The notes beneath the pieces were generated by a model. That model searched no databases. It was not told the DNA's origin and saw only the letters and a program-made list of their open reading frames with translations. From an uncultured Bacteroidales bacterium (GTDB lineage Bacteria; Bacteroidota; Bacteroidia; Bacteroidales; Paludibacteraceae): a stretch of DNA of 33,608 nucleotides. Both the position numbers and the translations under genes were made by a program. Below, piece by piece: positions 29,847 to 33,608 of this stretch (position 1 is the stretch's first letter; each line of letters starts with the position of its first letter). The stretch is from positions 1 through 33,608 of the forward strand of contig CAMJDT010000031.1 in NCBI GenBank assembly GCA_946404495.1. The letters run 5' to 3'.

Positions 29847-29920
29847 ATAAAAATGCAGATTTTTTATCAAACTTGCAAATTTCTATAGGCTTATAGTGTC
29901 CAAGAAATGGGGGACATAGC

Positions 29921-30190
29921 ATTGATCGTGACATAGCGCGGTTATATGGAGTAGAGACAAAACGTCTCAATCAACAAGTGCAACGTAACCTCGAACGTTT
30001 CCCTGGGGACTTTATGTTCCAATTGAACAAAGAAGAGGCAGAATCTTTGAGGTCACAATTTGCAACCTCAAACGATATTTCAAGGTCACAATTTGCAACC
30101 TTGAACGATGATCCTGATAACTTGAAGTCGCAAATTGCGGCCATAGAAAATGAGGGTGATGGGCTTTCTTTTTCGCGAAGCGAGAGATAA
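29921..30190 (+). pseudogene. Truncated ORF6N-domain gene remnant
   Basis: The plus-strand frame starting at 29921 reads IDRDIARLYGVETKRLNQQV followed by QRNLERFPGDFMFQL and NKEEAESLRSQFATS. This matches the ORF6N domain of phage-derived and Bacteroidota DNA-binding proteins. There is no start codon upstream: a TAG is met nine codons before the homology. The family's downstream part (the YAFTEQGVAML region) is absent. After the core, three related segments follow (LRSQFATS, SRSQFATL, LKSQIAAI), then a stop at 30188-30190. An ATG at 29978 could give a 70-residue peptide, but expression is doubtful. It marks the boundary between the core region and the accessory operon. Confidence 0.75.
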
Positions 30191-30238
30191 AAATGAAGAT
30201 ACAAAGATGTGTGAAAGTGTGATGGAGTGAAAGAGGGA

Positions 30239-30269
30239 TAAAAAAACGCGGCACTTGTGGTGTCGCGTT
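30239..30269 (-). terminator. Rho-independent terminator of the methyltransferase-nuclease operon
   Basis: On the minus strand AACGCGACAC pairs with GTGCCGCGTT (one wobble) around a five-base loop and ends in seven T residues. It lies about 100 bases after the last gene. The rest of 30191-30369 shows one weaker hairpin and no gene. Confidence 0.88.
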
Positions 30270-30315
30270 AGAAGTTAACCTGTTAGGGGATGTTGTTCCT
30301 TTTTTGGGTTAATAG

Positions 30316-30342
30316 AAATAAAAAGGGCGAGACTTGCGTCCC
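30316..30342 (-). terminator. Possible second, weaker terminator after the GIY-YIG gene
   Basis: GGGCG (30325-30329) can pair with CG.CCC (30337-30342) with one bulged base, and on the minus strand it is followed by a TTTTTATTT tract. The stem is short. Confidence 0.4.
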
Positions 30343-30369
30343 ACCCCCCTGAATAAGCACACGATATAT

Positions 30370-31017
30370 TTAACTCTCACTTCCCTCAATCGGATATGTC
30401 TCGTCGTATATATCCGACAGAAGTATACCAGTTTCTTTCACAATCCAATGTGGTGTAGGCTGAACATATTTTGCGCTGCCGCCAAGCAACTGGGCTGTCA
30501 ATGGAGAAAGTGATGTGGGCTCTCCATTGAATGTAACATGTCGATTGTCGCGGATGGAACATGTATATGTATCATCGTGTTTATATATAAGAATATCGCC
30601 CTCACGAAGCCCCATCTCGTAGAAATCCAGCGGTGGACGTTTGGTACGGGCTTTCTCCTGAGCCGCTTTGTCTTCGGGTGTCAAATCATTCTCAATCTCT
30701 TGTGTTACTTCTGTGGTTACATCTTCATGCTGGAAAAGTTCAAGAATGGCTATCGCCTGTTCTGGCGCAATCTTGAAGAACTCGCGCGTGGCATTTATTC
30801 GCTGTGGTGCAAATGCAGTATGTAGTGCCTTTTCAATCTTTCCACATTCTGATTTTTTTACATTGCAGGCGTACTTACATTCAAATGGAAGTGGCACACC
30901 GGTGGTATATAACTCTTTCATCCGTGCGTCTATATCCTTACGCTCGGTCATTCCAATCTTCACAATGCCCGGCATACACGGGTTGGTCAGTACATAAACG
31001 ATTCCTTGCTCTTTCAT
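30370..31017 (-). CDS. GIY-YIG (T5orf172-type) nuclease with RAMA-like C-terminal module
   Basis: This protein has 215 residues. Positions 6-90 are a GIY-YIG fold of the T5orf172 type: IVYVLTNP (7-13), GIVKIGMTERKD (17-28), an Arg in ARMKELYTTG (about 32), the Glu of KIEKALHTAF (about 62) and REFFKI. A charged linker (about 95-127) leads to a module at about 128-208 (RPPLDFYEMGLREGDILIY, HVTFNGEPTSLSPLTAQLLG, WIVKETGILLSDIYDETY) that resembles RAMA-type domains, predicted to recognise modified DNA in restriction proteins. It lies 10 bases after the DUF262-HNH gene and ends the operon. The C-terminal call is from memory of the pattern and less certain than the N-terminal one. Confidence 0.8.
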   Translation of the reverse strand: MKEQGIVYVLTNPCMPGIVKIGMTERKDIDARMKELYTTGVPLPFECKYACNVKKSECGKIEKALHTAFAPQRINATREFFKIAPEQAIAILELFQHEDVTTEVTQEIENDLTPEDKAAQEKARTKRPPLDFYEMGLREGDILIYKHDDTYTCSIRDNRHVTFNGEPTSLSPLTAQLLGGSAKYVQPTPHWIVKETGILLSDIYDETYPIEGSES

Positions 31018-31027
31018 ATAGTAACTT

Positions 31028-32212
31028 TTATCTATTTCCTTTCGCTCTATTGTGTGTTTTGCATAACATTTGACAGTTGGATATGTCAGTGCTGCCGCCT
31101 TTGCTCCATGCGGTTACATGGTCGGCATCCATCTCTTCCATTTTCCAAATTCGACGACGATTGGCATCGTGACCTATGGCGCAATAAGGGCAGTTACTAA
31201 CATCTTCTGCTTTTGCTTGCGCAGTCTGAAGGTCATATACTTGCCTCATTATTTGTTTTGGGAAAAGACGTACATTCAATAGTTTTGTATCCAAACAGCC
31301 ACCAAGCACATATTCAAATACGCCACGACGATTACCCACGCATTCATCATTCATCAATTCCAGAACTTTTGCAGATAATTTGGTGTGGTCGTACGGATGA
31401 GTGTGGAAGCGCTCGTACAATTCGCCCCAGTTAAGCCCTTGCATTTCATCATAGACATCATCGAATTTGCTATCAACCCAATCTATAACCGTGTAGAAAT
31501 AGGTCTTTATCTCGGTGATGTTCTCATCGCAGCGGTGACTACTCATATAATTTTCCACATTACCCTTGCTCACCCATTCCAGAGCCGTAGCCAAGAACTG
31601 CTGACGATTTGCCGGACCTTTGACGTAACTCTCCCATTTCTGGATATTAGCATTGCCGGAATTGCTAAACTCTGCCTTGCACAGCGTCACAAACGGGCCG
31701 CTGAAGATGGCATTGAGTTCTTCCTGATGATTAAGCGGAATACCGGCGATATTGATTGTCTTGAACCATTCCTTGATCTCTTCTTCTGCATGGTCACCCT
31801 CTCCTTCACAGATATAGACAAGCAACTTGGTATTAAGGATTTTCCGCTGCAAGCCTTCGTCTAAGCCATCGAAGATTTGCTCCAAGCCGTTGATCTTTAC
31901 GGCAAATTTATTCTTTATGAACCGCCCCAACGAGGTGATACGTTGTTGCCCGTCCAGCACTTCCAACTCTGTCTGCGGCGATTTGAAATCTTTGTTGCGG
32001 TTAAAGTAGATAAGTCCGAGCGGATAACCCTTTAGTACGGATTCTATCACAGCCACATCGCGTTTCCCATCCGCATAAATATAGTTACGTTGGTACTCCG
32101 GCTGAATGGTTAACTGACCTGCCAAACCATAGAGACCCTTGCCTTCCAATTCGTTGTATTCAAAGCCGTCGCAGATCTGCTCAACGGTATAAGTCTTAAA
32201 CTCTGTTTTCAT
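31028..32212 (-). CDS. DUF262-HNH nuclease-like protein (GmrSD-related)
   Basis: This 394-residue protein has an N-terminal DUF262 domain (related to ParB/Srx and GmrS) with IQPEYQRNY at 36-44, VIESVLKGYPLGLIYF and the signature LDGQQRITSL with DGQQR at 87-91. The middle (about 150-335) is helical. The C-terminus is an HNH domain: CPYC at 341-344, DADHVTAWSKGG with D364 and H365, an Asn at about 379, and CKTHNRAKG with H387. DUF262 proteins hydrolyse nucleotides and control nucleases in Type IV GmrSD and related defence systems. Here the nuclease is HNH rather than the usual DUF1524 type. The ATG follows the methyltransferase stop by two bases. Confidence 0.88.
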   Translation of the reverse strand: MKTEFKTYTVEQICDGFEYNELEGKGLYGLAGQLTIQPEYQRNYIYADGKRDVAVIESVLKGYPLGLIYFNRNKDFKSPQTELEVLDGQQRITSLGRFIKNKFAVKINGLEQIFDGLDEGLQRKILNTKLLVYICEGEGDHAEEEIKEWFKTINIAGIPLNHQEELNAIFSGPFVTLCKAEFSNSGNANIQKWESYVKGPANRQQFLATALEWVSKGNVENYMSSHRCDENITEIKTYFYTVIDWVDSKFDDVYDEMQGLNWGELYERFHTHPYDHTKLSAKVLELMNDECVGNRRGVFEYVLGGCLDTKLLNVRLFPKQIMRQVYDLQTAQAKAEDVSNCPYCAIGHDANRRRIWKMEEMDADHVTAWSKGGSTDISNCQMLCKTHNRAKGNR

Positions 32213-32214
32213 GA

Positions 32215-33363
32215 TTATTGCTTTTTGCGGATTAGTAGTCTTTGATATACTTTTTCAAGTTGTCCATTTACAATTATTACTCCACTGGCATTTAAATCAT
32301 AAGTGCCCGGTTTCCCAAACTTCTTGAGATACGCATCCTTACACTCCTGAGAAGTGTATATCTTGGTTTTCAATGAATATAAATCTAAGTTTTCACACAT
32401 TCCAAGAATCTCGAATTGTTCAGGGCAATATTTATCGAGAAACGATGTCGGCACGCCCATTATTTCGTTATAATCGGATGGAATTGAATCCGTATATGGA
32501 ATTTCTATAGCATTATAGTTCTCATATTTAAGAAACTCCTTACGTTCACGTATCTCCTTATGTTTGCTATGCTTAAAAATATCTGCCATCGTCATTAACT
32601 TAAGAGGTTGATGACGACGACCATGATCGATATTAGTAAGCCAGCAGCAATTACGAAACTTTACAAGACCTGTTTCTGCATCATAAACGCCATCTGCGTA
32701 TTCTCTTTCTTCTACAATTCGGAAATAGGCATTGCCATTATTAAATCCATTGCCAAGCCAAACTTTATTATCCTTAATAAGAGGGAAAATCTCTTTATAG
32801 GTAATAGCGTTCATATTTCCTATTATAATGAACTGCTTACTGGCTTCCATAATCCATGCTACAAACTCTCGGAATAGGCTGAACGGCGGATTAGTAACGA
32901 TTATATCTGCCTCGTCGCGTAATTGGCATATTTCTTTACTGCGGAAATCTCCATCGCCCTCTAAATAATGCCATTGCAAGTCTTCTATATCAATCCGACC
33001 ACTATTATTAGAATCATGGTCAAGAACGAAAATCTTGCCATGTGTGCGTGTTTTGTCTTGGTCGAATAACGGACTTTCAGTTTCAAACAAAGTAGGCATA
33101 TAACCCTCTTTGAATTTCTTTGATTCGGGCGCAAAACTGGTGGAGATTAGTTTCTTTAATCCCAATAGTTCAAAATACTGGGCGAAGAATTTGGTGAAGT
33201 TACTCCATTCGGGATCATCACAAGGCAGGAGTACCGTCTTGCCACGAAACACATTGGGGTCATAGTCCAGATAGGCGTTTATCTCCTTCTGAATATCGGG
33301 AAACTGGGTATAGAACTCATCGTTCTTTGCCGTCTTTGCATTTGCAAGATTTGTGTTTGCCAT
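32215..33363 (-). CDS. EcoRI-type adenine-specific DNA methyltransferase
   Basis: This is a DNA N6-adenine methyltransferase of the EcoRI methylase family (PF13651). From the ATG at 33363 it is 382 residues (MANTNLANAKTAKNDEFYTQ, the usual family start); an upstream ATG at 33396 would add 11 residues encoded by an inverted repeat and is less likely. The family block LLPCDDPEWSNFTKFF is at 45-60, KIFVLDHDSNNSG near 110-122 and the catalytic NPPF at 158-161. FIIIGNMNAITYKEIFPLIK follows. The usual EcoRI endonuclease partner is absent; DUF262-HNH and GIY-YIG genes take its place. Base composition is clearly more AT-rich than the core region, suggesting acquisition by transfer. Confidence 0.92.
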   Translation of the reverse strand: MANTNLANAKTAKNDEFYTQFPDIQKEINAYLDYDPNVFRGKTVLLPCDDPEWSNFTKFFAQYFELLGLKKLISTSFAPESKKFKEGYMPTLFETESPLFDQDKTRTHGKIFVLDHDSNNSGRIDIEDLQWHYLEGDGDFRSKEICQLRDEADIIVTNPPFSLFREFVAWIMEASKQFIIIGNMNAITYKEIFPLIKDNKVWLGNGFNNGNAYFRIVEEREYADGVYDAETGLVKFRNCCWLTNIDHGRRHQPLKLMTMADIFKHSKHKEIRERKEFLKYENYNAIEIPYTDSIPSDYNEIMGVPTSFLDKYCPEQFEILGMCENLDLYSLKTKIYTSQECKDAYLKKFGKPGTYDLNASGVIIVNGQLEKVYQRLLIRKKQ

Positions 33364-33364
33364 A

Positions 33365-33398
33365 GATTGATAGTTTGTTTTGTGCATAACTATCAATC
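33365..33398. promoter_or_regulatory. Perfect 10-bp inverted repeat at the methyltransferase start
   Basis: GATTGATAGT (33365-33374) and ACTATCAATC (33389-33398) are exact reverse complements separated by 14 bases. The repeat lies immediately upstream of the probable start codon (33363-33361). It could be an operator or an mRNA hairpin limiting initiation. No promoter matching the window consensus was found further upstream. Confidence 0.6.
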
Positions 33399-33430
33399 AC
33401 CAAACAGACAAAAAGTGTGAACAATTTATC

Positions 33431-33588
33431 CGTTCGCCAAGGTATGTAGGAAACCCGTTCCCGTGATAAATGCTCACACTTAATTGCATGAGCATTGCTA
33501 TTACCTATACGGGAAAGAGTATCCATACACGGACACCTTTACTTATTATTTCCGGTTCTTATGAAACTTCCTACATTTCTGGCGAACG
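33431..33588. repeat. Nested imperfect palindrome (158 bp) upstream of the methyltransferase operon
   Basis: Four nested arms pair in order: CGTTCGCCA 33431-33439 with 33580-33588; GTAGGAA 33446-33452 with 33568-33574; TTCCCGT 33458-33464 with 33509-33515; AATGCTCA 33469-33476 with 33489-33496. A 52-base unpaired stretch (33516-33567) lies on the right side. No convincing gene is seen. It could be a MITE-like element, a recombination site or a structured RNA. Confidence 0.6.
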
Positions 33589-33608
33589 ATGAAATAATAG
33601 TAATGCTA

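What the first reader, a model, noticed from the sequence alone, without database searches (positions are those of the whole stretch)
30238..33398. Candidate new restriction/defence operon: EcoRI-type methyltransferase, DUF262-HNH and GIY-YIG with RAMA-like module
Three genes are packed with gaps of 2 and 10 bases and close with one strong terminator. A modification enzyme of the EcoRI methylase family is followed not by an EcoRI-like endonuclease but by two different nuclease-type proteins. One carries a DUF262 regulatory domain fused to HNH (a GmrSD-like arrangement, normally Type IV and methyltransferase-independent). The other is GIY-YIG with a module resembling RAMA, predicted to sense modified bases. 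A natural reading is a restriction-modification-like system in which the methyl mark protects the host and two nucleases read its absence or presence. The block is AT-rich and sits beside an ORF6N remnant, as expected for an acquired defence island.
Basis: partly seen in the sequence, partly recalled or inferred. Interest (0 to 1): 0.78.

Follow-up and report, generated by a model that had tools for sequence, protein, structure and literature searches.

The report
Restriction operon with swappable target reader
Three packed bacterial genes form a predicted restriction-modification operon from a widespread family in which the DNA-marking enzyme exchanges two segments between near-relatives while its partner nuclease stays almost unchanged, so the marking enzyme likely picks the target for both; a conserved folded RNA precedes the operon and an optional third gene, predicted to be an extra nuclease, closes it.

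Summary
The three genes are real, adjacent and intact. The EcoRI-type methylase (PF13651) and the DUF262-HNH protein are a widespread pair: adjacent, same strand, methylase first, at 31 of 39 PF13651 places in 295 genomes. PADLOC already models them as type II R-M. The GIY-YIG gene (PADLOC candidate PDC-S57) is optional, but recurs as the last gene of this and other adenine-type R-M operons (type I, MmeI-like, type ISP). Its C-terminus has the RAMA fold.

New points. (1) Over 97 pairs, nuclease identity tracks the methylase core (rho 0.77, 0.82) but not two methylase blocks (0.05, 0.19). Nucleases at least 95% identical sit beside methylases whose blocks are median 26% and 15% identical; single-block swaps occur. 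The methylase therefore likely specifies both marking and cutting, unlike a classical type II system. (2) A pseudoknotted, covarying leader RNA, matching no Rfam family, directly precedes the methylase. In related genomes it also abuts start codons of other R-M genes and of envelope-modifying genes (39 of 40 loci checked; five are this methylase family again).

Specificity transfer, cleavage and RNA function are inferred, not shown. Verdict: a new variant of a known kind, headed by a candidate new RNA family.

The parts
33364..33608 (-). Structured leader RNA, almost complete; ends at the methylase start codon and includes the GATTGATAG/CTATCAATC terminal hairpin
   Evidence: DNA fold z -4.8; RNA fold z -6.7; relatives 98%, 88%, 88% identical upstream of other methylases; covariation in relatives; R1 hit 33364-33498, E 1.2e-18 (this row was in the model)
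32215..33363 (-). EcoRI-family adenine methyltransferase, PF13651, from the likely ATG start
   Evidence: MTase_II; NPPF motif at 32881-32892, N, P and F invariant in 97 of 97 and the second P in 96 of 97
32653..32757 (-). Hypervariable block HV1 of the methylase (likely target recognition)
32254..32397 (-). Hypervariable block HV2 of the methylase (likely target recognition)
31028..32212 (-). DUF262-HNH protein, likely restriction effector (DUF262 31703-32107; HNH 31031-31192)
   Evidence: REase_II PDLC03418, 2.2e-78; DGQQR, D364, H365, N379, N388 each 97 of 97
30370..31017 (-). GIY-YIG plus RAMA-fold protein, PDC-S57, optional 3'-terminal gene (GIY-YIG 30736-31017; RAMA fold 30385-30639)
   Evidence: (5.9e-77); Y8, E62, H66, N75 each 35 of 35 and R32 34 of 35
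30321..30350 (-). Terminator-like hairpin after the operon
   Evidence: pattern match only; 5 found in the region, 2.9 expected from shuffles
29897..30190 (+). ORF6N-like remnant without a start codon, beside the operon
   Evidence: reading frame; family name recalled, not tested

Best explanation
This is a predicted adenine-type restriction-modification operon whose methylase carries two exchangeable segments beside an almost unchanging DUF262-HNH protein, so the methylase likely supplies the target specificity for both marking and cutting, the nuclease would act at sites left unmethylated, and the GIY-YIG/RAMA gene is likely an optional accessory nuclease. Shown here: gene families and order, recurrence of the pair, block swapping with a constant nuclease, conserved active-site residues, the RAMA-type fold, and a covarying leader RNA. 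Inferred: that the two blocks are the target-recognition parts; that methylase and nuclease meet on DNA; that DUF262 couples nucleotide hydrolysis to HNH cleavage, as reported for GmrSD, BrxU and SspE; that the RAMA domain contacts adenine-methylated or adenine-target DNA; and that the leader RNA tunes expression by attenuation.
For: Pairing: 31 of 39 PF13651 places have the HNH gene within 6 kb, all 31 downstream on the same strand; 29 of 32 HNH hits at E<1e-30 have the methylase. The pair is annotated on Enterococcus and Arthrobacter plasmids; on a Moraxella plasmid the next gene is a hypothetical protein of matching size, not tested. Specificity: over 97 pairs, Spearman with nuclease identity is 0.77 (methylase N part) and 0.82 (middle part), but 0.05 (HV1) and 0.19 (HV2). 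Of 36 locus pairs with nucleases at least 95% identical, only 6 share both block types. L208/L209: nuclease 99.7%, HV1 18%, HV2 13%. L260/L261: nuclease 99.2%, N part 100%, HV1 100%, HV2 19%. There are 81 block combinations in 97 loci, and five HV1 types recur with both nuclease subfamilies; at a stricter 80% identity 13 of 2242 cross-subfamily pairs share HV1 and none HV2. Independent hint: in Prevotella intermedia an M.EcoRI-like methylase (51% identity) with a downstream REase gene left no GAATTC methylation (PMC5608340, passages). Nuclease residues invariant. Accessory gene: N6/N4-type methylase motif in 32 of 59 upstream operons and 2 of 51 downstream, m5C motif in none.
Against: No methylome or cleavage data were found for these proteins. 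That the blocks read the target is inferred; they could vary for another reason, such as escape from phage inhibitors. The structure model of the methylase is only moderate (mean pLDDT 74.5) and its C-terminal part was barely tested by the fold comparison. Eight of 39 PF13651 places have no HNH partner (two of them likely pieces of one gene in G035), so the methylase may also work alone. The authors of the P. intermedia study read missing GAATTC methylation as an inactive system, not as another target. PADLOC and REBASE-based annotation treat such pairs as type II. No control R-M family with independent recognition was run through the same analysis.
Confidence: 0.6

Rival explanations
1. A classical type II R-M system: methylase and DUF262-HNH each recognise the same sequence on their own.
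For: Two adjacent genes; PADLOC models MTase_II and REase_II; the P. intermedia relative was filed as type II.
Against: The nuclease does not change when one or both methylase blocks are replaced; a nuclease with its own fixed specificity would then cut its host. Blocks that vary without changing the motif would rescue this view.
Confidence: 0.2
2. The DUF262-HNH protein senses the methyl mark itself (SspE-like or GmrSD-like) and needs no sequence information; the mark switches the nuclease on or off generically.
For: DUF262 proteins GmrSD, BrxU and SspE sense DNA modification (PMC10952713, passages). A mark sensor would also stay constant while targets change.
Against: A generic adenine-methyl sensor would conflict with other adenine methylases. 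The HNH part is PF01844 rather than the DUF1524 named for GmrSD, and PF07510 was not among the matches. SspE-type phosphorothioate genes were not looked for.
Confidence: 0.15
3. One reading: an obligate three-gene system in which both nucleases read the presence or absence of this methylase's mark.
For: The triplet recurs in 16 of 80 named GIY loci, with the GIY gene last and on the same strand (spacing for 15 of them).
Against: Most pairs lack the GIY gene: none of the 81 pairs fetched from genome searches had it in the fetched flank, and the GIY gene follows unrelated R-M systems.
Confidence: 0.05

Closest known systems
Type II R-M with EcoRI-family methylase (PF13651); PADLOC MTase_II/REase_II; M.Pin25611FORF1345P of Prevotella intermedia
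   Same: Same methylase family, same gene order, similar gene sizes; already annotated as R-M
   Different: Methylase blocks are exchanged while the nuclease stays constant; no GAATTC methylation found in the P. intermedia case, whose REase I did not check for DUF262-HNH
Type I (HsdS) and type ISP/MmeI R-M with exchangeable target recognition domains
   Same: Independently exchanged recognition blocks; one protein would define the target for marking and cutting (features of these types recalled)
   Different: Blocks lie inside a small (about 380 aa) EcoRI-type methylase; the effector is a separate DUF262-HNH protein with no helicase
GmrSD, BrxU, SspE (DUF262 nucleases)
   Same: DUF262 with DGQQR motif fused to a His-Me finger nuclease
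   Different: Those are modification-dependent; here the partner is a methylase and the nuclease part is PF01844 HNH
GIY-YIG-RAMA fusions noted in PMC11037411; PADLOC PDC-S57
   Same: Same two-domain layout; already flagged as a candidate
   Different: Suggested there as possible 6mA readers in type IV restriction; here found as the last gene of adenine-type R-M operons

Membership tests
Classical type II R-M | Adjacent methylase and endonuclease genes | tested here: met
Classical type II R-M | Endonuclease carries its own target recognition, matched to the methylase | tested here: not met
   Indirect test: nuclease identity does not follow HV1/HV2. No cleavage assay.
Type I/ISP-like shared specificity | Two recognition blocks exchanged independently while the effector is constant | tested here: met
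   (that the blocks are recognition parts is inferred)
Type I/ISP-like shared specificity | Effector is an ATP-dependent helicase/translocase nuclease | tested here: not met
   Pfam finds DUF262 and HNH only
Type IV GmrSD | DUF262 fused to DUF1524 | tested here: not met
   DUF262 met; nuclease part hits PF01844, DUF1524 not listed at E<=1
Type IV GmrSD | Cleaves modified DNA without a cognate methylase | not testable with these tools
   Methylase partner is nearly constant; activity not measurable
SspE | Phosphorothioate sensing with SspABCD partners | not tested
   -
EcoRI methylase family PF13651 | Pfam match over cut-off, full length | tested here: met
   412 bits against cut-off 26.4
GIY-YIG (T5orf172) | Domain match and conserved Tyr, Arg, Glu | tested here: met
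RAMA | Pfam PF18755 match | tested here: inconclusive
   0 of 35 members at E<=10
RAMA | RAMA fold | tested here: met
PDC-S57 | PADLOC model match | tested here: met
   PDLC05041 5.9e-77, nearly full length
Known Rfam RNA family (leader) | Reaches a family's gathering score | tested here: not met
   Window: only tRNAs; 5 relatives: one sub-threshold hit at E 0.44 and nothing else up to E 1

The most novel reading that the evidence does not exclude
A new pseudoknotted leader RNA acts as one mobile switch for the phage-facing genes of these bacteria, heading both R-M systems and envelope-modifying enzymes, and here it controls an R-M system of a new layout in which a sequence-blind DUF262-HNH nuclease takes its target from a methylase with two exchangeable recognition cassettes.
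Probability: 0.35. Interest if true: 0.9.

Novelty: new variant of a known kind. Interest (0 to 1): 0.78.

Why it matters
If the methylase sets the target for both activities, many annotated 'type II' EcoRI-methylase/DUF262 pairs are misfiled, and their targets could be re-programmed by exchanging two short blocks, which is easy to test. It would give DUF262 nucleases a methylase-guided mode besides modification sensing. The leader RNA, if regulatory, would link intracellular restriction and surface change, two main barriers to phage, under one shared element in a gut and rumen lineage.

Tried and rejected
Rfam for the leader: only tRNAs in the window at gathering score; in five relatives one sub-threshold hit at E 0.44 away from the leader, taken as chance. 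The leader as a DNA repeat within this genome: no second full DNA copy, though the covariance model found a second, diverged copy on another contig. Leader as an integron attC site: considered from memory of the attC core motifs and dropped, not tested. Leader found only at this R-M family: rejected, 44 of 107 strong hits do not lie upstream of an HNH hit, and of 40 of these examined five are this methylase family without a detected nuclease. IMG/VR viral contigs: one scan with the nuclease alone, which finds close relatives only, found none. Sequence search of PDB: nothing for the methylase or the GIY protein, one weak DUF262 match (E 0.037) for the nuclease. First consensus fold of 33 leaders gave only two helices, probably because variable helices misalign; a subset of 14 gave four helices, one of them a pseudoknot. 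NCBIfam gave only sub-cut-off matches. GIY gene as an obligate third part: rejected. m5C-type R-M beside the GIY gene: motif not seen in any of 80 loci (a simple pattern, no profile). Print searches for the pair, the GIY-RAMA operon gene or the RNA; I saw listings, and passages of five papers; none of what I saw describes the block swapping or the RNA. The library is open-access only.

Full report
WHAT IS THERE. The three minus-strand genes lie at 32215-33396, 31028-32212 and 30370-31017, 2 and 10 bases apart, in DNA of lower GC than the rest of the window. Pfam: EcoRI_methylase; GmrSD_N (DUF262) plus HNH; T5orf172 GIY-YIG. PADLOC: MTase_II, REase_II (PDLC03418, near full length), and PDC-S57, a phage-defence candidate without a description in the library. 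The window equals one contig of a 65-contig genome; another contig shares its last 55 bases. Its first genes are a large ORF that I would call VirE_N/DUF3987 from memory and others; by eye none is an EcoRI-like endonuclease (no family search). That contig junction is likely but not proven.

THE PAIR IS COMMON. In 295 genomes of the order, PF13651 was found in 36, the HNH protein in 40 (several are weak DUF262-only hits) and the GIY protein in 17. Of 39 PF13651 places, 31 have the HNH gene within 6 kb, always downstream on the same strand; the other eight do not (two of the eight are likely pieces of one gene). Of 32 HNH hits at E<1e-30, 29 have the methylase, and the three exceptions include two at contig starts. 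In 200 genomes of the family the HNH protein is in 75 at E<=1e-30. The methylase has relatives on 91 plasmid records; of the three I opened, the Enterococcus and Arthrobacter ones show an annotated DUF262 gene next, the Moraxella one a hypothetical protein of matching size.

ACTIVE SITES. In 97 HNH proteins DGQQR, D364, H365, N379, N388, C341, C380 and C384 are invariant. This agrees with the DH-N-N pattern reported for GmrD (PMC4619093, passages). H387 is not conserved (38 of 97). In 35 GIY proteins Y8, K20, G22, E62, H66, N75 and R78 are invariant and R32 is in 34.

THE LEADER RNA. Upstream of the methylase lies a 245-base element that folds far better than shuffles (z -4.8 as DNA; -6.7 as RNA). 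Of 94 leaders measured (97 pairs, three too short; start codons called automatically), 71 have z below -3 and 64 below -5, with 30 shuffles each. Operons with the GIY gene mostly lack it: z below -5 in 5 of 15, against 59 of 79 without the GIY gene. The window's leader is 98% identical to one upstream of a methylase with the other nuclease subfamily (L236). In 14 aligned leaders four helices (38 pairs) form in 96.8% of cells, against 88% in column shuffles and 32-41% when slid. 20 pairs change on both sides (0 of 500 shuffles reach this; the weaker measure of extra pair types is reached by 5 of 500); helix 2 in 8 of 9 pairs, and the pseudoknot helix in 7 of 10. The structure was derived from these sequences. 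The pseudoknot's 5' arm can instead pair with the segment before it, and its 3' arm runs into a T-rich stretch: an arrangement like an attenuator (inference). A covariance model of the 3' part (R1) hits 92 of 200 family genomes at E<=0.001 and 13 of 247 order genomes at E<=1e-6, four of them of the own family. Of the 107 hits listed at E<=1e-10, 63 lie within 5 kb upstream of an HNH hit in the same orientation and 44 do not. I fetched 40 of the 44: in 39 a start codon of an ORF of at least 60 aa lies within -4 to +5 bases of the RNA's end; five of these are again this methylase family, truncated or at contig ends. Of 38 such proteins scanned (L306 without an ORF and the 77-aa one of L326 left out; for L309 the second gene, the methylase, was used), each of the 17 Pfam families matched is either DNA methylase/R-M (Eco57I, PF13651, MmeI, N6_Mtase, D12 and others) or envelope enzyme (sulfatase-type 9, acyltransferase 3, MBOAT 2, glycosyltransferase 2). 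Some had no match, such as L300 and L301. R1 was trained on leaders of this R-M family, so its hit counts favour that family.

VERDICT. The finding is real. The operon is not a one-off: it is a common pair plus an optional third gene. The surprising parts are the decoupling of methylase blocks from the nuclease and the leader RNA.

Noticed in passing
L105, L127, L134 (between methylase and HNH genes; L127:3294-5020): An ATPase gene plus a small partner is nested inside the R-M operon between methylase and nuclease. The L127 pair matches PADLOC PDC-M31A/B, the ATPase also AriA at 1.2e-24; the other two share the ATPase cluster.
   Followed up: partly
L148:1445-2302: A single-unit HsdS-like protein (PDC-S13; Specificity_I 2e-48) sits between the methylase and the HNH gene.
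   Followed up: no
G000:C24:248-394 (own genome, L316): Second, diverged copy of the leader RNA (E 1.7e-9), abutting the start of an ORF cut by the contig end that looks MBOAT-like by eye.
   Followed up: partly
L297-L316, L320-L339: The leader RNA heads R-M genes and envelope-modifying genes (sulfatase-type, acyltransferases, glycosyltransferases) with start codons flush to the RNA end.
   Followed up: partly
L106, L107, L119, L120, L132 and others, gene before GIY-YIG: Variable cargo between nuclease and GIY gene: TIR-like PDC-S35 (L119), PDC-S31 (L132), proteins without a PADLOC match elsewhere (L107, L120).
   Followed up: partly
H41/H42, Flavobacterium phage vB_FspS_laban6-1, 11445-12578: A phage encodes a DUF262-HNH protein 63% identical to the window's.
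   Followed up: no
window 29897-30190, + strand: ORF6N-like remnant (name recalled) containing repeated RSQFAT-type segments; no start codon.
   Followed up: partly
L186 (G460:C5): DNA about 75% identical to a gene 6.6-7.3 kb into contig C22 (L003; KilA-N-like by recall) lies just upstream of another methylase-HNH pair.
   Followed up: no
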